Source: Bartonella sp. DB5-6 (lineage in GTDB: Bacteria; Pseudomonadota; Alphaproteobacteria; Rhizobiales; Rhizobiaceae). Taken from it: a stretch of DNA of 64,000 bases. Below the pieces are notes generated by a model. It ran no database searches. It saw nothing but the letters and a program-made list of their open reading frames with translations, and was not told the origin of the DNA. Positions 32,935 to 59,103 of this stretch are shown piece by piece. Both the position numbers and the translations under genes were made by a program. How positions within the stretch are numbered: the stretch's first letter is position 1; the number at the start of each line of letters is the position of its first letter. The stretch lies in contig NZ_JH725117.1 of NCBI RefSeq assembly GCF_000278115.1, positions 133,257 through 197,256 of the forward strand. Reading direction: 5' to 3'.

Positions 32935-33837
32935 ATGCATGAATTTACCACCCTTCTTGCAGAACATAGGCGCACCGTTGAAAGGCGACTTGATACACTG
33001 TTAAGTGATCAAGTTCAAAATGGTGAAATTGCCCGTCCTGAAATCCTCATCCAAGCCATGCGCTACGGTGTACTGAATGGTGGAAAACGTTTACGTCCTT
33101 TTCTTGTTATGCAAAGTGCGGCACTGTTTGATATCCCTACTGAACACTCTCTTGATATTGCATGTGCCTTAGAATGTGTTCACTGTTACTCACTCATTCA
33201 TGATGATCTTCCCGCTATGGATAACGACACACTCCGACGTGGACAACCCACAGTTCATAGAGCATTTGATGAAGCAACAGCAATTCTAGCAGGCAGTGCT
33301 CTCCTAACATTTGCCTTTGAAATCATTGCCCATAAAGCCAATACACTCTCCTTTGATACCAGAATAGAACTAATTACAGCTCTTGCACAATCTGCAGGAG
33401 TTGGTGGTATGGTAGGCGGACAAATGCTTGACCTTGAAGCGGAAAAAAAACCACAAGAGGGCACCAACATTATCACTCTACAACGCATGAAAACAGCCGC
33501 TCTGATAAGCTTTGCTTGCCAAGCAGGTGCAATAATCGGCAATGCATCCAAAGAATTAACGAAACAACTTGCTACTTTTGGAACATATCTCGGTTTAGCC
33601 TTCCAATTGACGGATGATCTTCTAGATGTCACCGCCAAAAGCGAAGTCCTAGGAAAAACAGCTGGGAAAGATGAAACAGCACATAAAGCGACTTTTGTTC
33701 GTCTTTATGGCATTGAAGAAACACAAAAAAAGCGAGACGAACTCATCGTTAAAGCAGAAGCACTTTTACACCCTTTTGGAGCTAAAGCAAAACCACTCCA
33801 ACAAGCTGCCCACTTTAGTGCAACACGAAAAAATTAA
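32935..33837 (+). CDS. ispA: Farnesyl diphosphate synthase
   Basis: A protein of 300 residues. Condenses isopentenyl diphosphate with dimethylallyl and geranyl diphosphate. First aspartate-rich motif DDLPAMDND with preceding HDD context, second motif DDLLDVT, and GGKRLRPFL plus GGQMLDLE. The first motif has the insertion of the bacterial short-chain (FPP) type. ispG, which makes the substrate's precursor, is at 38084-39325. AAAGGAAGC lies upstream of the start. The C-terminus is slightly divergent. Confidence 0.93.
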   Translation: MHEFTTLLAEHRRTVERRLDTLLSDQVQNGEIARPEILIQAMRYGVLNGGKRLRPFLVMQSAALFDIPTEHSLDIACALECVHCYSLIHDDLPAMDNDTLRRGQPTVHRAFDEATAILAGSALLTFAFEIIAHKANTLSFDTRIELITALAQSAGVGGMVGGQMLDLEAEKKPQEGTNIITLQRMKTAALISFACQAGAIIGNASKELTKQLATFGTYLGLAFQLTDDLLDVTAKSEVLGKTAGKDETAHKATFVRLYGIEETQKKRDELIVKAEALLHPFGAKAKPLQQAAHFSATRKN

Positions 33838-34173: not shown

Positions 34174-35334
34174 TTAATATTCGCGCTGAGACCTTTTTAG
34201 AGTTCCTTCTAAAAAAAACACTGCAAACAAGTAGATGAATATATATATACCAAAAATATATACTAATGACAGAAAACCAAACATACTTACCATATACGCA
34301 CTCATGTAAAAAAATACCAATAGGCTAAGCCTTCCAACAGTGGACAAGAAAGATTCGTATGTAGCCCTAAGATTATCGCTAATACTATCGTGCAGGACAA
34401 CTTCCACACGAAGATATGTATACTTAATGAGATAAAAAATCATACAGACTAAAATAACAGCAATTTCTTTTTTGGGCTCAAAGAAGGCAACTGTAAAAAT
34501 CGTAGCAGCTGAAAGAAACAGTAGTAGAATAAAATTCACTCCCTCACTTAGTTTTGTAAAGAGAAAACTAGCCAGTAGCTGAGAGAGCAATATAAGAGAA
34601 AACGTTATACCAAGATAAAAATAAGTTACATTGATATCATAATCTTTAAATATCCACTGCCAATACTGAGAAAATATATTGAAAAAAATAAGTGAAAAAT
34701 AAAAACATAGAGATATGTAAGGAACTTTAACAAAAATAGAGAACATTTCTCTTGCGTCAGAAATGAAAGAATTCGCTTTTATTGTTTTTGTCTTTCCCTT
34801 TAGATCATCCAAAAAAAACAAACCAAAGACTGTTGTGATCATCATTAAAAACGCAGATATATACCATATATATTGGCTAGAATAATCGGCAAAATATGCG
34901 CCTATCAAACTAAATATAAACATGCCAATGTAATTATATTGAGAGCTGGAACCGAGCACTTTTTTAGTGGATGCAAGTTTTGTTTTTGCATATTGAACAA
35001 GTAGGGCATTATAGGCACCAGCAATCAATGTAAGCGATAATGCATTAAAAGTTTCTGCCAAAAGAAAACCGTAAAAGCTTGTAGAAACTCCCATGAGAAA
35101 GAGCCATGCGGTAGCAAAAGCCGCTGCCAAAATTATAGATATTTTATAACTTTTTCTATCGGCAAAATATCCAAGAGGAATATCTGTAACCATCATAATA
35201 AAAGCTTGAAATGACTTAATTATACCGATATCGATAAGGGTTAAGCCTTTTTCAAGCATATAAAATACAATAAAGGCGCCTGTTAAAATCCTTATACCGT
35301 TAAATAAAAATCCAAATGCTAATATACTTTTCAT
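34174..35334 (-). CDS. MFS transporter, probable exporter of the peptide cassette
   Basis: A protein of 386 residues with about 12 predicted membrane helices. The loop between helices 2 and 3 holds GYFADRKSYKISI, a variant of the MFS motif A (G-x-x-x-D-R-x-x). Last gene of a minus-strand cassette, 59 bases after the E1-like gene. In microcin C clusters an MFS protein (MccC) exports the modified peptide and protects the producer; by analogy I infer that role here. It is low in GC, like the rest of the cassette and unlike ispA and ispG on either side. No strong ribosome-binding site is visible; the start is the first ATG. Confidence 0.75.
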   Translation of the reverse strand: MKSILAFGFLFNGIRILTGAFIVFYMLEKGLTLIDIGIIKSFQAFIMMVTDIPLGYFADRKSYKISIILAAAFATAWLFLMGVSTSFYGFLLAETFNALSLTLIAGAYNALLVQYAKTKLASTKKVLGSSSQYNYIGMFIFSLIGAYFADYSSQYIWYISAFLMMITTVFGLFFLDDLKGKTKTIKANSFISDAREMFSIFVKVPYISLCFYFSLIFFNIFSQYWQWIFKDYDINVTYFYLGITFSLILLSQLLASFLFTKLSEGVNFILLLFLSAATIFTVAFFEPKKEIAVILVCMIFYLIKYTYLRVEVVLHDSISDNLRATYESFLSTVGRLSLLVFFYMSAYMVSMFGFLSLVYIFGIYIFIYLFAVFFLEGTLKRSQREY

Positions 35335-35393
35335 TTATTCACCAATAGCGTCCACAAAGTAATGTACTAATTATTTTATATAAATATAAAAGC

Positions 35394-36503
35394 TCACATT
35401 TTATTACAGATATGGCAAGAGCCGCTATATGGATCTCCAGTCTTATCAATTTGATATCCGGAAAAATTAATGAATAATGTTTTTTCTATAATTTGACATT
35501 TGTCAAAATCCGTTAAATATTTCACTGCTTCAAGAGCAGCCAAAGAACCAGCAACCGCATTATATGGATCTATCAAAGTATTCATATAGTTTTGCTTAAT
35601 ATTTTTAACAAATTCAAACTCATTAACATCCTTTATATGATTCTGATTCACACATGCATAACATCTGGTTTTACCTAGAATAATAAGTGGCCCAACAATA
35701 GCATTTACCGTAGCCGAACCGACATATAATAACGCCCCCCTCATATTGAAAGCGGCTTCGTTCATCAAATGAAAAAAATCGGGCCTTGGATTATCTGCTG
35801 CGGATATAACAAGATCAGCTCCTTCAAACAGACGGCATGCCTTCTCTATACTATCTATTTTTTCATCGTAGAACGCATATTGAGTTGAAGGGCTAATATA
35901 GGGAGCTTTATCTCTAACAACATCAACCTTTTTTTTCCCTAAGTCATTATAATTATAGAGTATTTGCCTAGACAAATTTGATTCTTCAACAATATCAAAA
36001 TCATAGCTTTTAATGTGTCCTACACCCATTGCAGATAATGTATAAAAAACATAGCTCCCGCATCCACCCAAACCAGCTATAGTTATCTTAGCATCTTTCA
36101 ATTTGGAGTTAGCTAAAAGAGCATTGTCAAAATTACCTGATACATGCTTAAATAAGTTAATTTGCCTATCAAATCTGTTATATTCGCTCTCACTAAGCCC
36201 TGCTTTTCTTATAGAATCCTCCTTAGAAAAGGGAGGTTCTATTATTCTATTATCAAGCATATATTTTGTTAAATATAAAAAATCTTCGCTTTCTGCAGTA
36301 TCTAGGTTACATTTTAATATTATATCACCTATGGTATTATCTGCGTCAAAACACGCCAAAGCCTTTATAACATTCGGCGATGTACCACTCATATCAAGGG
36401 CTACAACGTTATGTATATCTGCCCCTATCAAAACCTCATCACCTTCTTGCCTCGCTGATATAGTATACGAGTAAACATACTTGTTTTCATATAGCGAATT
36501 CAT
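35394..36503 (-). CDS. MccB/ThiF-like E1 adenylating enzyme with N-terminal peptide-recognition domain
   Basis: Start ATG 36503, eight bases after GGGGGAG; 369 residues. Residues 1-95 are a small strand-then-helix domain of the PqqD/RRE type seen in RiPP enzymes and in MccB. Residues 110-369 are an E1/ThiF fold: the RFDRQ arginine motif (110-114), nucleotide loop GLGGCG (144-149), Asp168/Asp170, SNLSRQ with Arg179, and AADNPR with metal-binding Asp237. Four zinc ligands are present: Cys281, Cys284, Cys363, Cys366. No transferable catalytic cysteine is obvious, as in MccB, which adenylates a peptide's C-terminus directly. The gene overlaps the AAA gene by 17 bases. Total size matches MccB (~350). 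Substrate inferred: the peptide of 37287-37394. Confidence 0.8.
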   Translation of the reverse strand: MNSLYENKYVYSYTISARQEGDEVLIGADIHNVVALDMSGTSPNVIKALACFDADNTIGDIILKCNLDTAESEDFLYLTKYMLDNRIIEPPFSKEDSIRKAGLSESEYNRFDRQINLFKHVSGNFDNALLANSKLKDAKITIAGLGGCGSYVFYTLSAMGVGHIKSYDFDIVEESNLSRQILYNYNDLGKKKVDVVRDKAPYISPSTQYAFYDEKIDSIEKACRLFEGADLVISAADNPRPDFFHLMNEAAFNMRGALLYVGSATVNAIVGPLIILGKTRCYACVNQNHIKDVNEFEFVKNIKQNYMNTLIDPYNAVAGSLAALEAVKYLTDFDKCQIIEKTLFINFSGYQIDKTGDPYSGSCHICNKM

Positions 36504-37233
36504 TTTCAAATCTCCCCCTAGCTAGCTGAAGATCTACATGACTCAACAAATCATGCAAATCTCTTGTGTTATCAAAATTAAAATTATCAAAACAAAATTT
36601 ACGCTCATGATACTCTTCAAGATATTTTATATGTAGCCTTATAGCATTCATTTTTTCATCTATTGATAACTCATCCAAGCTTATATGATGAAATCTACGA
36701 AAAAACGCAGTATCTCCTTGAATATGTGCTAATTCAGCAGAAGTGGTTGCTACAATAAGCTTTAAATTCTGTTCCAGTATAAAAGGTTTGAATAAATCCA
36801 TAGCGCCAATACCCCCATCACTTTTGGTATGAGCAATTGAATGCCCTTCATCGATAAACAGGGCGACATTTTCATATGGAGAAACAGTTTCTATTAAAGC
36901 CCCAATTTTTCGTTCAAACTCCCCCCGCAATCCCGTATCAGATATCACGCTTCCTAAATTAACTTCTAATATGACATACCCATTCACCATAGACTTAGAC
37001 TGATTAAGCCTACAAGCAAGCTCACGCACAAAAGAAGTCTTTCCACATCCAGCAGAACCAGAAATGACAATGCTTTTCTTATAAGCACAAAATAAAGAAA
37101 CCATCGCCATTCTTATTGCATCTTCGCGACCGATATATGGAGATCTCCTCCCTAAACCAAGGACATTTAAATTAACTCCACATTTTCTTATATCGCTAGC
37201 CAACAGCACCGCATCTTCGCTCTGTAAATGCAT
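36487..37233 (-). CDS. Single AAA+ module related to the ClpA/ClpB first ring
   Basis: A protein of 248 residues. It parallels the D1 module of ClpB: YIGREDAIRMAM, Walker A GSAGCGKTS (59-67), GLRGEFERKI (101-110), Walker B VALFIDEGH (123-131), sensor 1 VATTS, and arginine finger FFRRF (178-181). The GLRGEFE segment is the position of pore loop 1, where ClpB has KYRGEFE; the aromatic tyrosine is replaced by Leu102. No N-domain, middle domain or second ring. In the operon it lies between the peptide gene and the E1 enzyme; AAA proteins are not part of the classic microcin C cluster. Role inferred: handling of the peptide or assembly of the modifying enzyme. GAGG precedes the ATG. Confidence 0.8.
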   Translation of the reverse strand: MHLQSEDAVLLASDIRKCGVNLNVLGLGRRSPYIGREDAIRMAMVSLFCAYKKSIVISGSAGCGKTSFVRELACRLNQSKSMVNGYVILEVNLGSVISDTGLRGEFERKIGALIETVSPYENVALFIDEGHSIAHTKSDGGIGAMDLFKPFILEQNLKLIVATTSAELAHIQGDTAFFRRFHHISLDELSIDEKMNAIRLHIKYLEEYHERKFCFDNFNFDNTRDLHDLLSHVDLQLARGRFENEFAI

Positions 37234-37253
37234 ATTACCTCAAACTGTAAATA

Positions 37254-37275
37254 GAAGGGGTCATACAACCCCTTC
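37254..37275 (-). terminator. Hairpin between the peptide gene and the AAA gene (possible attenuator)
   Basis: gaagggg-tcatacaa-ccccttc is a perfect seven-bp stem with an eight-base loop, 12 bases after the peptide stop. No strong T-run follows on the transcribed strand, so it may act as a partial terminator or mRNA stabiliser. In microcin C operons a hairpin in the same place makes the peptide message more abundant than the enzyme message. Confidence 0.6.
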
Positions 37276-37286
37276 CAATATTTTAG

Positions 37287-37394
37287 TTACGACAATAAAG
37301 AGTCACAAATCAAAGATTTCACTTTAGCAAATGTAGAGGAATAAGACTTAATCTTCGTTACTAGTACCACTTTAGTATTTAATTCTACCTTCAT
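37287..37394 (-). CDS. Candidate precursor peptide of the E1/AAA/MFS cassette
   Basis: Thirty-five residues: MKVELNTKVVLVTKIKSYSS followed by TFAKVKSLICDSLLS. ATG 37394 is preceded by GGGGAGG, a strong site at five bases, whereas a longer frame reaching a TTG at 37475 has none. It has basic and hydrophobic character, one cysteine near the C-terminus (CDSLLS), and no homolog that I recognise. It is first in the cassette, followed by a hairpin. MccB-type enzymes act on C-terminal Asn of classic precursors; here the end is Ser, so a different acceptor chemistry or a processed form would be needed. If the longer 62-residue form is real, the N-terminal part is a leader. Confidence 0.5.
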   Translation of the reverse strand: MKVELNTKVVLVTKIKSYSSTFAKVKSLICDSLLS

Positions 37395-37475
37395 TTTAAC
37401 CTCCCCGTTTAAAATAACATTTGGAAGAAATATCTCTCCCAAATTTAACCTAGTATTTGTATCAGAATATTCCAA

Positions 37476-38083: not shown

Positions 38084-39325
38084 TCAACCTTGCCCAAAGC
38101 GTGTATGAATATAATCACTCAAAAGAGATTCGAATTCCTCGGCAATATGTTCACCCCGCAAGATTTTCACTTTTTTTCCCTCAATAAAAACAGGCGCTGC
38201 CGGACTTTCGCCCATTCCAGGCAATGAAATCCCAATATCAGCATGTTTTGATTCTCCTGGTCCATTAACGATGCATCCCATGACAGCAACCTTTAAACTT
38301 TCAACACCAGGGTATTTTTCACGCCAGACAGACATATTTTTGTATAAATTCGCTTCAATTTTTTGTGCCAATTGCTGAAACACTGTCGAGGTTGTGCGCC
38401 CACATCCAGGGCAAGCCGCAACGACGGGCAAAAATTGCCGAAACCCCATCACTTGTAAAAGCTCTTGAGCCACTCTTACTTCTCGTGTTCGATCTCCACC
38501 TGGTTCAGGTGTTAATGAAATACGGATCGTATCCCCAATCCCTTGTTGTAACAAAATTCCCAAAGCCACAGAAGAAGCAACAACGCCCTTTGTTCCCATC
38601 CCTGCTTCTGTCAATCCCAAATGGAGCGCATAATCACAACGCTCTGCCAAGGTACTATAGACAGCAATGAGATCTTGAACATCACTAACTTTAGCAGAAA
38701 GAATAATTTTATCGCGTCCCAACCCAAGCTCTTCCGCAAAAACAGCCGAATGTAGAGCCGATTGAACAACAGCCTCCCGCATCACTTCAACGACAGACAA
38801 AGGTTTTTCCTGCTTAGCATTTTCATCCATAAGTTGTGTCAACAACACATTATCAAGAGACCCCCAATTCACACCAATACGAATAGGTTTACAGTACTGA
38901 CAGGCAATCTCAACAATTTCCGCAAATTGGCGATCTTTTTTCACGCCAAAACCAACATTTCCAGGATTGATCCGATATTTTGCAAGCGCCTGCGCACAAG
39001 CAGGATGTTCTGATAAAAGCTTATGACCAATATAATGAAAATCCCCCACCAATGGTACAAAAAAACCTAACCGTTCCAATCGCTCCCGTATTTTTGGCAC
39101 AGCAGCAGCAGCTTCATCACGATCAACGGTGATGCGAACCAATTGCGAACCAGCTTGCCAAAGAGCAGCAATTTGTGCAACGGTTGCATCAACATCGGCA
39201 GTATCCGTATTCGTCATTGACTGAACAACAATCGGACACGCCCCACCAACCATCACATCGCCAACCGCAACGCCAACAGACCGACGACGTTCAAAAGGTT
39301 TAGATAAAGAATACGCAGTGCTCAT
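38084..39325 (-). CDS. ispG: 4-hydroxy-3-methylbut-2-en-1-yl diphosphate synthase
   Basis: A protein of 413 residues. Non-mevalonate isoprenoid pathway enzyme that converts methylerythritol cyclodiphosphate using a 4Fe-4S cluster. N-terminal TIM barrel: [31 protein letters not shown], and the [16 protein letters not shown] strand. The cluster ligands sit in the C-terminal part: CPGCGRTT and [16 protein letters not shown]. Monocistronic on the minus strand. Partner in isoprenoid synthesis with ispA. Confidence 0.95.
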
Positions 39326-56383: not shown

Positions 56384-56517
56384 TATATCTTTACCGTATT
56401 GTAAACAAAATATACTATTTATTAAAATAATATTTTATATTCTATAATATATACATAATGTATTTATTATTTATACGGTGTTTTTATTGCTATAAAGCAA
56501 AATTATGTTTTACATCC
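56384..56517 (+). repeat. Promoter-region repeat, copy 1
   Basis: Highly similar to 57893-58021; both contain tttac-gtattgtaaa, atactatttattaaaataatatttt and the hairpin ttgctataaagcaa. They lie at equal distance before the two peptide genes, so they carry their shared promoter and leader. Confidence 0.85.
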
Positions 56518-56545
56518 TAAAAAGGGAAGTGATAAGCATTTACAT

Positions 56546-56560
56546 GTATTATTATAATAC
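56546..56560. promoter_or_regulatory. Operator-like dyad of unit 1
   Basis: gtattat-t-ataatac, a perfect seven-base inverted repeat around one base, 30 bases before the first peptide start. The equivalent site of unit 2 differs at symmetrical positions, which keeps the symmetry. Confidence 0.6.
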
Positions 56561-56590
56561 GTTTATTCCAAAATTTAAAGGAGGATTTAT

Positions 56591-56860
56591 ATGCGTAATT
56601 TTGGTTCAGGCTTAGTTTATACTATAAATGATTCAACACCTGTTTATGGAAATGCATGTAGTACTAATGATTTTATGTCTCACATGAATTCACAGGGTCT
56701 TCAAATAGGGAGTCCGGCAGGAATAAGCGGAGCATTGTTAGGTGATATAGCTGGAGGACCAGCAGGTGCAGTTTCAGCTGGAATCGCAAGTTTCACAACG
56801 GGATATATAGGAGGTGGTGTCTGGGAGTTCGGACAAAAAGCTTATGAATGTTGGTTCTAA
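56591..56860 (+). CDS. Glycine-zipper bacteriocin-like peptide 1
   Basis: A protein of 89 residues. AAAGGAGG seven bases before the ATG is a near-perfect ribosome-binding site. Residues 40-77 are a glycine/alanine-rich hydrophobic stretch with GxxxG spacing (GISGALLGDIAGG and AGAVSAGIASFTTGYIGGG), as in pore-forming class II bacteriocins. Cys23 and Cys87 flank it. No typical double-glycine leader, and no signal peptide. Paralogous to the peptide at 58098-58334 (shared C-x-x-x-D, Gly pattern and C-terminal E-C). I infer an antibacterial or membrane-active peptide; no exporter lies in this window. Confidence 0.7.
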   Translation: MRNFGSGLVYTINDSTPVYGNACSTNDFMSHMNSQGLQIGSPAGISGALLGDIAGGPAGAVSAGIASFTTGYIGGGVWEFGQKAYECWF

Positions 56861-57014
56861 TTTATAGATAATAACTACAAAGATATCTCTGAAATCAATA
56901 ATCTTGTAAACATATTTGAAATAATATATCAAAATTAAATATCTATATCTATAGATAAAATATTTTTCAGAGATATCTATTAGTATCATATAATATAATT
57001 AGGATTTTGTTATA

Positions 57015-57197
57015 ATGGATATTCATTATGAAATCATAAGACTTTTTCTCATGCTAATTATAATCACTCCTATAATTGCCACTTTTTCTAAAATATTTAG
57101 TGGTTGGAGTTGGAAATTATCTATAACGTTAGCATTATCGTCAATTATTATATTCTTTATTTCTGATTTTTCCCGTAGATATTTTGGTTTATATTAA
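57015..57197 (+). CDS. Small hydrophobic protein, probable immunity protein (unit 1, a)
   Basis: A protein of 60 residues with two likely membrane helices (about 8-24 and 33-50) joined by a GWSWKLS turn, ending SRRYFGLY. The size and layout fit immunity proteins of pore-forming peptides. It has close paralogs at 57289 and 58468. The leader agatatctatta to gttataatg recurs in front of each. It follows peptide 1 by 154 bases. Confidence 0.65.
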   Translation: MDIHYEIIRLFLMLIIITPIIATFSKIFSGWSWKLSITLALSSIIIFFISDFSRRYFGLY

Positions 57198-57288
57198 TAT
57201 TTATTGAATAAATTTCAAGAAAAATTAATAAACTTAATTTTATAGATATCTATTATGTATCATATATTACAATTAGGACTTTGTTATA

Positions 57289-57471
57289 ATGAACATTCGT
57301 TATGAAATCATAAGATTTTTTTTTATGATTGTTGTATTTGTCTCTCTATATGCTACTATTGCTAAATTATTCTATAATCGTAGTTGGAAATTATCTATCA
57401 TAACAGCATTATCAGCAGGAATTGTTTTTTTTATTTTTGATAGTGTGTGTAGATATTTTGGTTTATATTAA
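57289..57471 (+). CDS. Small hydrophobic protein, probable immunity protein (unit 1, b)
   Basis: A protein of 60 residues, a duplicate of 57015-57197 one 274-base unit later: MNIRYEIIRFF start, RSWKLSIITALSAG turn, CRYFGLY end. Same start codon context. Substitutions lie mostly in the first helix, which is the pattern expected if the copies protect against different peptides. Confidence 0.65.
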   Translation: MNIRYEIIRFFFMIVVFVSLYATIAKLFYNRSWKLSIITALSAGIVFFIFDSVCRYFGLY

Positions 57472-57558
57472 CATTTATTGAACAAATTTCAAAAATGTTG
57501 AATAAAATATTTTTCAAAGATATCTATTATTATCATATAATATAATTTGGATTTCGTA

Positions 57559-57777
57559 ATGTCAGATTTTAATCATAAAATTATTGAATCGTTCATGGTA
57601 ACAGTTTTCTTTGGTTTAATATATCTTTTTTATTATAAATTTATTTCTTACAGTTGGAAAGATTCTCTAAAAAACTCATTATTAACAAGCCTTCTATTTT
57701 TTATTATTAGTATTTTATTTAACTATATTGGTTTATATCAAGTTTTGAGAAATTTTTATAATGGATATTTATCATAA
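57559..57777 (+). CDS. Small hydrophobic protein, second immunity-type family (unit 1, c)
   Basis: I start at ATG 57559 ([12 protein letters not shown]); the frame opens at a TTG at 57547. 72 residues. Related to the 60-residue proteins ([11 protein letters not shown] turn) but with the ending [13 protein letters not shown]. Its counterpart in unit 2 is 58727-58930. Two membrane helices. Overlaps the next frame by 17 bases. Confidence 0.6.
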
Positions 57778-57913
57778 ATTCCTAGAGGCATTATTTCAAA
57801 CAATTGCATTTGGATTATTACTTACAATTATTTTGAAATTTAAAGGATATAAGATTAAAAGTATTATTTATAATGATAATATCTTTTACTATTATATCTT
57901 TACGGTATTGTAA
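57761..57913 (+). CDS. Small hydrophobic protein (unit 1, d), truncated form
   Basis: Fifty residues from ATG 57761: [20 protein letters not shown] then [13 protein letters not shown]. The C-terminus ([16 protein letters not shown]) runs into the unit 2 promoter repeat. The unit 2 counterpart (58930-59103) has a longer natural end but ATT instead of ATG, so neither copy is fully intact. Too short for easy recognition; supported by the paralog. Confidence 0.5.
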
Positions 57914-58021
57914 AAAATATACTATTTATTAAAATAATATTTTGTATTCTATAATATAGACATATATATTTATTGTTTATACAGTGTTTTTATTGCTATA
58001 AAGCAAAATTATGTTTGACAT
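57893..58021 (+). repeat. Promoter-region repeat, copy 2
   Basis: Second copy of the promoter region of 56384-56517, and so the right-hand boundary of unit 1. The tail of the truncated frame ends within it. Confidence 0.85.
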
Positions 58022-58051
58022 TTATCTAAAGCGCATGATAGCCATTTATAA

Positions 58052-58068
58052 CGTATCATGATGATACG
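58052..58068. promoter_or_regulatory. Operator-like dyad of unit 2
   Basis: cgtatcat-g-atgatacg, a perfect eight-base inverted repeat around one base, 29 bases before the second peptide start. Consensus with unit 1 is GTATYAT-N-ATRATAC. Confidence 0.6.
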
Positions 58069-58097
58069 ATTTTTAATATCTTACAAGGAGGATTGAT

Positions 58098-58334
58098 ATG
58101 TTCGGTTCAAGAAGTTTTTTTGATAAGTGTGGCCCTTATGATTATATCTCGGCTGGAAGTTCAGCAGGACTCAAAGCTGGAGCTTATGGAGTTTTAGGCG
58201 GGTTAACTTACGGCTGGGTAGCGGGGCCACTAACCCCAGAAGTTGTAGGCGGAACTGCGCTAATGAGCTACACAGTAGGATTTGCCTCCGGTTTGGAAAA
58301 TAAATATCACGAGTGCCATTCTTTTAATTTTTAA
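58098..58334 (+). CDS. Glycine-zipper bacteriocin-like peptide 2
   Basis: A protein of 78 residues. CAAGGAGG seven bases before ATG. Gly/Ala-rich hydrophobic core, about residues 20-65 (AGSSAGLKAGAYGVLGGLTY and VVGGTALMSYTVGFASG) with Cys11 and Cys73 at either end, a spacing of 62 residues versus 64 in peptide 1. No leader. With peptide 1 it could form a two-peptide bacteriocin, or be a diverged duplicate. Confidence 0.7.
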   Translation: MFGSRSFFDKCGPYDYISAGSSAGLKAGAYGVLGGLTYGWVAGPLTPEVVGGTALMSYTVGFASGLENKYHECHSFNF

Positions 58335-58467
58335 GAGAATATATAAAAATATATCTCTGAACTCGGTAATTTATAAATACAGAATATTTTGTCTAAAGAT
58401 ATTGATAAAACAAACTTCAGAGATATCTCTTTCTTGTAATTTTATATATTAATTGAGTTTTATTATG

Positions 58468-58650
58468 ATGGATATTCTTTATCAGATTAAAGAATCGTTA
58501 TTTTCAATAATTATTTATATTTTTTTAGGTATTCCTATTTTCCGAAAAATGAGTGGACTCAATTGGAAAGAGGCTGTAAAAGCAACATTATGTACAAGCA
58601 TTCTATTCTTTATTTCTGATTTTTTGCGTAGATATTTTGGTTTGTTTTAA
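58468..58650 (+). CDS. Small hydrophobic protein, probable immunity protein (unit 2, a)
   Basis: I start at ATG 58468 (MDILYQIKESLF), giving 60 residues, exactly the length of the unit 1 copies. LNWKEAVKATL turn and LRRYFGLF end. Two membrane helices. Unit 2 carries one copy of this family where unit 1 has two. Confidence 0.65.
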   Translation: MDILYQIKESLFSIIIYIFLGIPIFRKMSGLNWKEAVKATLCTSILFFISDFLRRYFGLF

Positions 58651-58726
58651 TATTTTATAAATAAATTATGAAAAAGATTAATAAAGTAGTTTTCGTAAAT
58701 AATATTAATATACATTATAATTCCTT

Positions 58727-58930
58727 ATGAACGATTTTTTTTATAAAATTAATGAATCGTTGTTTGTAACAATTATATTTTGTCTATTATATGTTTTTCA
58801 ATGGAAATTTATTGGTTATAGTTGTAAAGATTCTATAAACAAATCCTTAAATATAAGCTTCATGTACTTTTTTGTTTGCTTATTATTAAAATATGCTAAC
58901 TTATATCAACTCTTGAGAAATATTTTATAA
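58727..58930 (+). CDS. Small hydrophobic protein, second immunity-type family (unit 2, c)
   Basis: A protein of 67 residues, counterpart of 57559-57777: [11 protein letters not shown] (Trp of the family replaced by Cys), ending [12 protein letters not shown]. Two membrane helices. The stop shares bases with the next frame. Confidence 0.6.
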
Positions 58931-59103
58931 TTGATATTTATCATAAATTCTTAGAAACATTATTTCAAACAATTGGAGTTGGATTATTACTTATAATTGT
59001 TTTGAAATTTAAAGGATATAAGATTAAAAGTATTATAATAAAATTATTATTTATAATGATAATATATTTTACTCTTATGTTTTTATACAGATTAATTAAA
59101 TAA
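58930..59103 (+). pseudogene. Small hydrophobic protein (unit 2, d) lacking an ATG
   Basis: A frame of 57 codons homologous to 57761-57913: [32 protein letters not shown], ending FLYRLIK. Where unit 1 has ATG it has ATT (58930-58932). ATT is a rare start codon, so low-level or coupled translation remains possible. Confidence 0.5.

What the first reader, a model, noticed from the sequence alone, without database searches (positions are those of the whole stretch)
34174..37394. Candidate undescribed peptide-modification system: short peptide, ClpA/B-like AAA, MccB-like E1, MFS exporter
Seen directly: four minus-strand genes in tight order, with two overlapping, all more AT-rich than the flanking ispA and ispG. 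The E1 protein has an RRE-like N-terminal domain, an intact adenylation site (GLGGCG, Arg179, Asp237) and a zinc site. Known: the MccB family adenylates the C-terminus of a short peptide, which is exported by an MFS protein and acts as a Trojan-horse inhibitor of a tRNA synthetase. What sets this apart is the AAA module between peptide and E1, and a 35-residue peptide ending in Ser rather than Asn. Inference: a new branch of microcin C-like or E1-dependent RiPPs.
Basis: partly seen in the sequence, partly recalled or inferred. Interest (0 to 1): 0.9.

Follow-up and report, generated by a model that had tools for sequence, protein, structure and literature searches.

The report
Peptide-modifying operon with ClpA-like ATPase
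A small bacterial operon encodes a 35-residue peptide, an enzyme likely to modify it chemically, an unusual motor protein and an exporter; similar sets occur in unrelated bacteria and look like a new branch of ribosomal peptide natural products, possibly antibiotics.

Summary
On the minus strand of a Bartonella chromosome, between ispG and ispA, lie a 35-codon peptide gene, a D1-only ClpA/ClpB-like AAA ATPase, a ThiF/MccB-like E1 and an MFS exporter. The AAA-linked E1s form one clade apart from E. coli MccB. In 71 Bartonella genomes E1 is intact in 4 and AAA in 2, but MFS in 20, 17 of them without an intact E1, under purifying selection (dN/dS about 0.12). That fits an exporter that also gives immunity. 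Microcin C membership is not supported: predicted precursors end in Ser, Asn, His, Pro or Arg, and the same genome holds a separate MccB-type locus with an Asn-ended heptapeptide. Best reading: a new branch of E1-dependent RiPPs whose single-ring AAA motor belongs to biosynthesis. Reaction, product and motor role are inferred. A 2025 review already mentions 'ClpA homologs' in microcin C-type clusters, so the AAA link is not wholly new.

The parts
37287..37394 (-). precursor peptide gene, 35 aa, MKVELNTKVVLVTKIKSYSSTFAKVKSLICDSLLS
   Evidence: an open reading frame of the same length in 6 of 7 further Bartonella loci read, the seventh having lost its start; dN/dS 0.22 against B. senegalensis, on 9 changes only
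37400..37406 (-). Shine-Dalgarno sequence GGGGAGG of the peptide gene
   Evidence: sequence
37254..37275 (-). hairpin GAAGGGG-TTGTATGA-CCCCTTC between peptide and AAA genes; possible attenuator or mRNA 3' end
   Evidence: fold -17.5 kcal/mol, z -3.06; a hairpin stands in the gap after the peptide gene in 4 other lineages; the terminator scan called it on the + strand only, and the U-run on the operon strand is weak
36487..37233 (-). AAA ATPase, 248 aa, single ClpA/ClpB D1-type ring domain; Walker A GSAGCGKT 59, Walker B IDEGH 127, pore-loop region LRGEFE 102-107, RRF 179; no second ring and no IG[FL] ClpP-type loop
35394..36503 (-). ThiF/MccB-like E1 adenylating enzyme, 369 aa
   Evidence: PF00899 5.8e-40; MccB 3h5n 1.9e-24; catalytic residues
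34174..35334 (-). MFS exporter, 386 aa, probably also immunity
   Evidence: PF07690 6.2e-16; intact with an ATG start in 20 of 71 genomes, 17 of them without an intact E1
38084..39325 (-). ispG, upstream flank of the operon (insertion-site marker)
32935..33837 (+). ispA, downstream flank

Best explanation
It is a RiPP operon. The 35-residue peptide is the precursor. The E1 binds it and uses ATP to activate a carboxylate, most likely at the variable C-terminus, which is then trapped by an internal or external nucleophile (chemistry not shown). The D1-only AAA ring has no ClpP loop. It is a biosynthetic partner of the E1, most simply a motor that loads the peptide into the E1 dimer or strips product from it (inferred). 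The MFS protein exports the product and protects cells, and is kept as a free-standing resistance gene after the biosynthetic genes decay. A hairpin after the peptide gene would let peptide mRNA outnumber enzyme mRNA, as reported for mccA-mccB. Shown: the genes, their recurrence, one E1 clade, the hairpins, the selective retention of the MFS gene. Inferred: the reaction, the motor's role, export, antibacterial activity.
For: AAA, E1 and MFS with a short peptide gene in Pantoea ananatis pOC5aB, Priestia aryabhattai, Exiguobacterium alkaliphilum pE73 and, degenerate, in G093 (peptide). AAA-linked E1s are one clade, support 94/96 and 93/94. A hairpin after the peptide gene in all 5 lineages folded, z -3.06, -3.79, -3.49, -2.08, -4.75. 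Purifying selection, window against B. senegalensis: peptide 0.22, AAA 0.15, E1 0.14, MFS 0.105. Full-length E1 without stops in 4 of 71 Bartonella genomes, full-length AAA without stops in 2 of 71, MFS intact in 20 of 71. All 8 genomes with any AAA match are among the 14 with an E1 match. MFS loci without an intact neighbouring E1: median dN/dS 0.12 over 153 pairs of 18 loci. In 7 species with about the same E1 breakpoint the MFS has median dN/dS 0.14 over 21 pairs, while the E1 remnants differ by frame-breaking gaps in 20 of the 21 pairs. Single Walker A and no IG[FL] in the AAA, against two Walker A and IGF in the genome's own ClpA-like protein.
Against: No product, no assay, no structure (models at pLDDT 33 and 45). 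Peptides of different lineages are not significantly alike except Pantoea and G093, so their role as precursors rests on position, length, SD and hairpin, and they were picked by eye. In G586 and G651 the E1 is intact although the AAA is broken: either the decay is recent or the E1 can do without the AAA; E1 of G651 against the window still has dN/dS 0.12, that of G586 0.36 on 24 changes. In 3 of the 21 pairs the E1 remnant is as alike as the MFS or more so, and the nucleotide alignment of the MFS itself shows paired frame gaps in 3 pairs. The AAA tree gives only 71/93 for one group of E1-linked AAAs. Gene order varies, and the annotated Priestia MFS gave no match to the window's. No leader protease in the operon. 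Eight of 11 E1 neighbourhoods read from plasmid and phage records, and G736, have no AAA partner. The Exiguobacterium hairpin is weak (8 of 200 shuffles as good), and several hairpins lack a clear U-run. The orphan MFS could be a general efflux pump.
Confidence: 0.58

Rival explanations
1. A microcin C-type operon: the E1 joins a nucleotide to the C-terminus and the product is a Trojan-horse inhibitor of a tRNA synthetase.
For: E1 nearest to MccB among solved structures; MFS exporter; hairpin between precursor and enzyme genes as in mccA-mccB (PMC6495379, Fig. 4 legend seen); the Pantoea precursor does end in Asn.
Against: MccB needs a C-terminal Asn (PMC6495379 and PMC12250964, passages); predicted precursors end in Ser, His, Pro, Arg in 4 of 5 lineages. 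E. coli MccB groups with another E1 of the same genome, 100/100 and 100/99, and that locus has a heptapeptide ORF ending in Asn. The profile matches PaaA (4.9e-43) nearly as well as MccB (9.9e-48).
Confidence: 0.13
2. C-terminal macrocyclisation: in Bartonella the activated C-terminus is attacked by Cys30 (CDSLLS) to give a thiolactone, or by a Ser four residues from the end, giving a small ring that is a signal or an antibiotic. This is one chemical form of the best explanation, not an alternative to all of it.
For: GrcB, IndF and EnfB, other ThiF-like enzymes, are reported to close rings at the C-terminus (PMC12150305 and PMC12250964, sections read). Cys30 is kept in 7 of 8 Bartonella peptides and lost in B. 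callosciuri, whose other three genes are broken. Ser at -4 in 4 of 5 lineages.
Against: No Cys near the C-terminus in the other four lineages; Exiguobacterium has Ala at -4, and G586 and G607 have Phe there.
Confidence: 0.25
3. The AAA is an immunity factor: a ClpA homologue that helps to destroy toxic intermediate, as the 2025 review suggests for ClpA homologues in microcin C-type clusters.
For: PMC12250964 section 2.4 (read); best NCBIfam match is ClpA.
Against: No second ring and no IG[FL] loop for ClpP. Within Bartonella the AAA matches in 8 of 71 genomes, all with E1 traces, while the MFS is kept in 34; one deletion can remove peptide, AAA and the E1 5' part together, so this is weaker than it looks.
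Confidence: 0.1
4. Not a RiPP: an E1-AAA protein-conjugation or phage-defence module.
For: Weak PADLOC matches to E1-E2 (6.2e-14) and TRIP13 (1e-4) models.
Against: No E2-, JAB- or ubiquitin-like gene among the operon's four ORFs (families); conserved peptide gene and hairpin; MFS partner.
Confidence: 0.05

Closest known systems
Microcin C7 (mccABCDEF; MccB)
   Same: short precursor gene, hairpin after it, MccB-like E1 with the same Arg/Lys/Asp set, MFS exporter
   Different: 31-35 residue precursors without a fixed C-terminal Asn, AAA ATPase, E1 of another clade, no MccD/E/F genes in the window's operon
Pantocin A (PaaA)
   Same: E1 profile matches PaaA over 5-352 of 360 positions; precursor of similar length (30 residues; recalled)
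   Different: PaaA acts on an inner Glu-Glu-Asn (recalled); an AAA partner is not part of that cluster as I recall it
GrcB / EnfB / IndF ThiF-like RiPPs of streptococci and enterococci
   Same: ThiF-like enzyme that activates the precursor's C-terminus, precursors longer than seven residues
   Different: the word searches for AAA and ATPase in the two papers found nothing; the partners named in the sections read are peptidases, transporters, radical SAM enzymes and others
ClpA/ClpB D1 ring
   Same: sequence of the AAA domain, Walker motifs, pore-loop region
   Different: one ring only, no Clp N-domain, no ClpP loop

Membership tests
Microcin C-type peptide-nucleotides | precursor with C-terminal Asn | tested here: not met
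   window peptide ends in Ser, as do the 7 other Bartonella peptides; other lineages Asn, His, Pro, Arg
Microcin C-type peptide-nucleotides | E1 groups with MccB | tested here: not met
   separate clade; caution: long branches, 19 and 20 rows, one MccB of E. coli only
Microcin C-type peptide-nucleotides | peptide-nucleotide product | not testable with these tools
   needs mass spectrometry
Microcin C-type peptide-nucleotides | hairpin/terminator between precursor and E1 operon | tested here: inconclusive
   hairpin present in 5 lineages; on the operon strand not called a terminator
ThiF-like (E1) RiPPs, general | ThiF adenylation domain with intact ATP site | tested here: met
ThiF-like (E1) RiPPs, general | N-terminal RRE | tested here: inconclusive
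   no model hit shown; profile aligns with PaaA from residue 5; fold prediction failed
ThiF-like (E1) RiPPs, general | short precursor gene beside the E1, conserved in relatives | tested here: met
   within Bartonella and between Pantoea and G093; across other lineages by position only
ThiF-like (E1) RiPPs, general | peptide is modified by the E1 | not testable with these tools
   needs in vitro assay
ThiF/MoeB of cofactor synthesis | lies with thi or moa/moe genes, groups with ThiF/MoeB | tested here: not met
   neighbours; tree
Clp protease ATPase subunit | two rings or ClpP-binding IG[FL] loop | tested here: not met

The most novel reading that the evidence does not exclude
A distinct RiPP class found in at least two phyla, in which a single-ring ClpA-D1-like AAA motor is an obligate partner of the modifying E1, and in which the freely varying C-terminal residues (Ser, Asn, His, Pro, Arg) set the product's target; such variation is what a set of aminoacyl-nucleotide mimics aimed at different tRNA synthetases, or a set of different small rings, would need.
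Probability: 0.28. Interest if true: 0.82.

Novelty: new variant of a known kind. Interest (0 to 1): 0.6.

Why it matters
ThiF-like RiPP enzymes have recently given several new bond types, and in the held library I found no paper that treats an AAA motor as part of such a pathway (search listings). Here the operon comes with relatives in plant and soil bacteria, predicted precursors, and a natural experiment in Bartonella where the exporter outlives the pathway. That makes the role of an AAA motor in peptide maturation, and an orphan-exporter form of resistance, directly testable.

Tried and rejected
I first took the in-frame run of AAA into E1 in G093 as a natural fusion (note); by eye, against Pantoea, the first part of the E1 is missing there and frame breaks lie before and after, so it is a degenerate copy and is not used as evidence for a complex. 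A family-wide thiolactone was rejected because Cys30 is confined to Bartonella. Viral scans with A1 and with the Pantoea E1 found no relative. Phage records gave no place that covers 80% of the E1; the 30 rows listed of 47 records are cofactor-type, unnamed or unannotated. E1 searches of 199 genomes of the family found G093 besides the window's genome; searches of 398 genomes of the phylum, 397 of the order and 385 of the class found no further AAA-linked E1 at the limits set; G736 is an E1-MFS locus without AAA, found twice because the two class searches covered the same class. Gammaproteobacteria and Bacillota could not be searched as groups of their own for want of a handle. Two Burkholderia AAA hits have no ThiF gene in the stretch shown. 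Left out of the shared-breakpoint set: G614 (altered MFS N-terminus) and loci whose match starts elsewhere (L061, L064/L083, L072 and others).

Papers: seen in part were PMC12250964 (outline, sections 4 and 17, passages), PMC12150305 (outline, part 1 of 2 of section 4, a word search), and passages of PMC6495379, PMC10949449, PMC7136475, PMC7157772 and PMC9239234; the rest are search listings. Bantysh 2014, Travin 2021 and Severinov & Nair 2012 are not held; that Bantysh 2014 reports microcin operons in Bartonella is taken from PMC10949449, so I cannot tell whether this very operon is among them.

Full report
What is there. Between ispG and ispA, on the minus strand, four ORFs stand in the order peptide, AAA, E1, MFS. 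AAA and E1 overlap by 17 nt. All four are poorer in GC than the flanks.

Protein families. E1: PF00899 5.8e-40; NCBIfam gives only sub-cutoff matches among the 25 shown of 29, MoeB first; in the PDB MccB 1.9e-24, then MoeB and PaaA. With a five-row family profile MccB 9.9e-48 and PaaA 4.9e-43. Arg179, Lys192 and Asp237 align with Arg, Lys and Asp of MccB in the printed alignments. The CxxC pairs at 281 and 363 are kept in the intact Bartonella E1s aligned but missing in Pantoea and Priestia. AAA: ClpA 1.8e-29, below cut-off, ClpB D1 3.1e-26 in the PDB; one Walker A, no IG[FL], whereas the genome's own ClpA-like protein has two Walker A and IGF. The 651-residue Priestia AAA also has one Walker A only.

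Recurrence. I read 11 E1 neighbourhoods from plasmid and phage records. Three have an AAA: Pantoea ananatis pOC5aB (MFS-AAA-E1, overlapping), Priestia aryabhattai (E1 divergent from AAA and MFS) and Exiguobacterium alkaliphilum (E1-AAA-MFS-methyltransferase). A fourth case, G093, a 1.2 Mb genome of the same family, has MFS-AAA-E1 with frame breaks and, by eye, a deletion. G736 has E1 and MFS but no AAA. Trees of 19 and 20 E1s put all AAA-linked E1s in one group, 94/96 and 93/94, present in 94% and 90% of 200 bootstrap trees. Exiguobacterium and some others are long branches, and the tool warns that long branches meet in the second tree. For the AAAs themselves the support is 71/93 (9 rows), so a common origin of the pair is likely but not shown.

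Precursors. Short ORFs with an SD sequence lie next to each set: Pantoea MTVKVASRIKCNKVQTVTMANVKAVVESLAN, G093 MTTKVASRIKFHKVNTITLINVKAVVESGFH, Priestia MKNSVKQGLQIKKAGAVHTGAMVSVTVNSVTP, Exiguobacterium MKTSNLVKVNVSAPVAVSAQTKIAAMAMAAER. They were picked by eye among several short ORFs of each region, so selection bias is possible. Pantoea and G093 are alike over 28 residues and differ in all of the last three; no other pair between lineages beats shuffling clearly. Within Bartonella the peptide is an open frame of the same length in the window and 6 of 7 further loci read, the seventh having lost its start. In all five lineages a hairpin lies in the gap after the peptide gene, z from -2.08 to -4.75. 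This resembles the terminator between mccA and mccB (PMC6495379, Fig. 4 legend), but the terminator scan called the window's hairpin on the other strand only, so its role stays open. Among 8 Bartonella copies the hairpin is damaged in some of the decayed loci.

Distribution in the genus. Of 71 genomes, 14 match E1 at 1e-22 or better and 4 have it full length without stops: G000, G586, G621, G651. The AAA matches at 1e-25 in 8 of 71, and is full length without stops in 2, G000 and G621. The MFS matches in 34 of 71 at 1e-60 and is an open frame of at least 379 residues with an ATG in 20 genomes (one further, G614, has an altered N-terminus and was left out). Seventeen of the 20 have no intact E1. 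Eighteen orphan MFS loci, including the second copy in this genome, give a median dN/dS of 0.12 (0.07 to 0.20, 153 pairs). Eight loci have an E1 match that starts near codon 257-259; in the seven with an intact MFS, MFS dN/dS is 0.14 (median dS 0.33, 21 pairs), while the E1 remnants differ by frame-breaking gaps in 20 of 21 pairs and are less alike than the MFS in 18 of 21. So the exporter has very likely been under selection after the pathway was lost. Immunity explains this most simply; a general efflux function is not excluded. Against a strict need for the AAA: E1 is still intact in G586 and G651, where the AAA is broken.

Same genome, other E1s. A locus on contig C5 (L030) has an E1 that groups with E. 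coli MccB, an MFS gene, and upstream a heptapeptide ORF MDHIGFN ending in Asn at L030:4453-4476; an in-frame stop lies at what looks like the start of that E1 frame. A further E1 with a methyltransferase-like part (named by eye) and stops is in L029. The contrast between L030 and the window's operon in one genome argues that the latter is another family.

Mechanism and confidence. Shown: genes, recurrence, clade, hairpins, selection. From knowledge of the families: ThiF-like enzymes adenylate a carboxylate, and D1 rings thread polypeptides. Inferred: that the peptide is the substrate, that its C-terminus is the site, that the AAA loads or strips the E1, that the MFS exports and protects. The AAA behaves as a biosynthetic gene because it is found only where peptide and E1 traces remain and lacks the means to bind ClpP; because deletions often take all three at once, that is suggestive only.

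Novelty. [quoted passage not shown] My searches of held papers for ThiF-type RiPPs with AAA ATPases listed no study of one. I therefore file it as a new variant of E1-dependent RiPPs.

Noticed in passing
window 56400-59100: Very AT-rich stretch (GC 0.20-0.27 in most windows) with two Gly/Ala-rich small ORFs (ATG about 56591 and 58098) that look by eye like class II bacteriocin precursors, each followed by several short hydrophobic ORFs that resemble one another (immunity-like).
   Followed up: no
L020:5657-6817 and L002: Second, 100% identical MFS copy in the same genome with the last 55 residues of E1 (99.6% over 1426 nt), beside another MFS gene, at the site where B. taylorii (L012, G648) has its one match; recent duplication or gene conversion.
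   Followed up: partly
L030:4453-4476 and following E1/MFS: A microcin C-type locus with heptapeptide MDHIGFN and an MccB-like E1 whose start region holds an in-frame stop.
   Followed up: partly
L029: E1 with a methyltransferase-like C-terminal part and stops, beside an MFS gene: a third E1 locus of the genome, apparently decaying.
   Followed up: no
L019: The degenerate MFS-AAA-E1 set of G093 lies between two copies of genes that look like gokushovirus (microvirus) capsid and replication genes, named by eye.
   Followed up: no
L053, L054, L057: Extra partial copies of the ispA 3' part between ispA and the MFS gene in several Bartonella species, as if the site were a hot spot of duplication.
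   Followed up: no
L014:9815-13649: Downstream of the Pantoea set lies a large P-loop NTPase gene with a small partner, perhaps a defence module.
   Followed up: no
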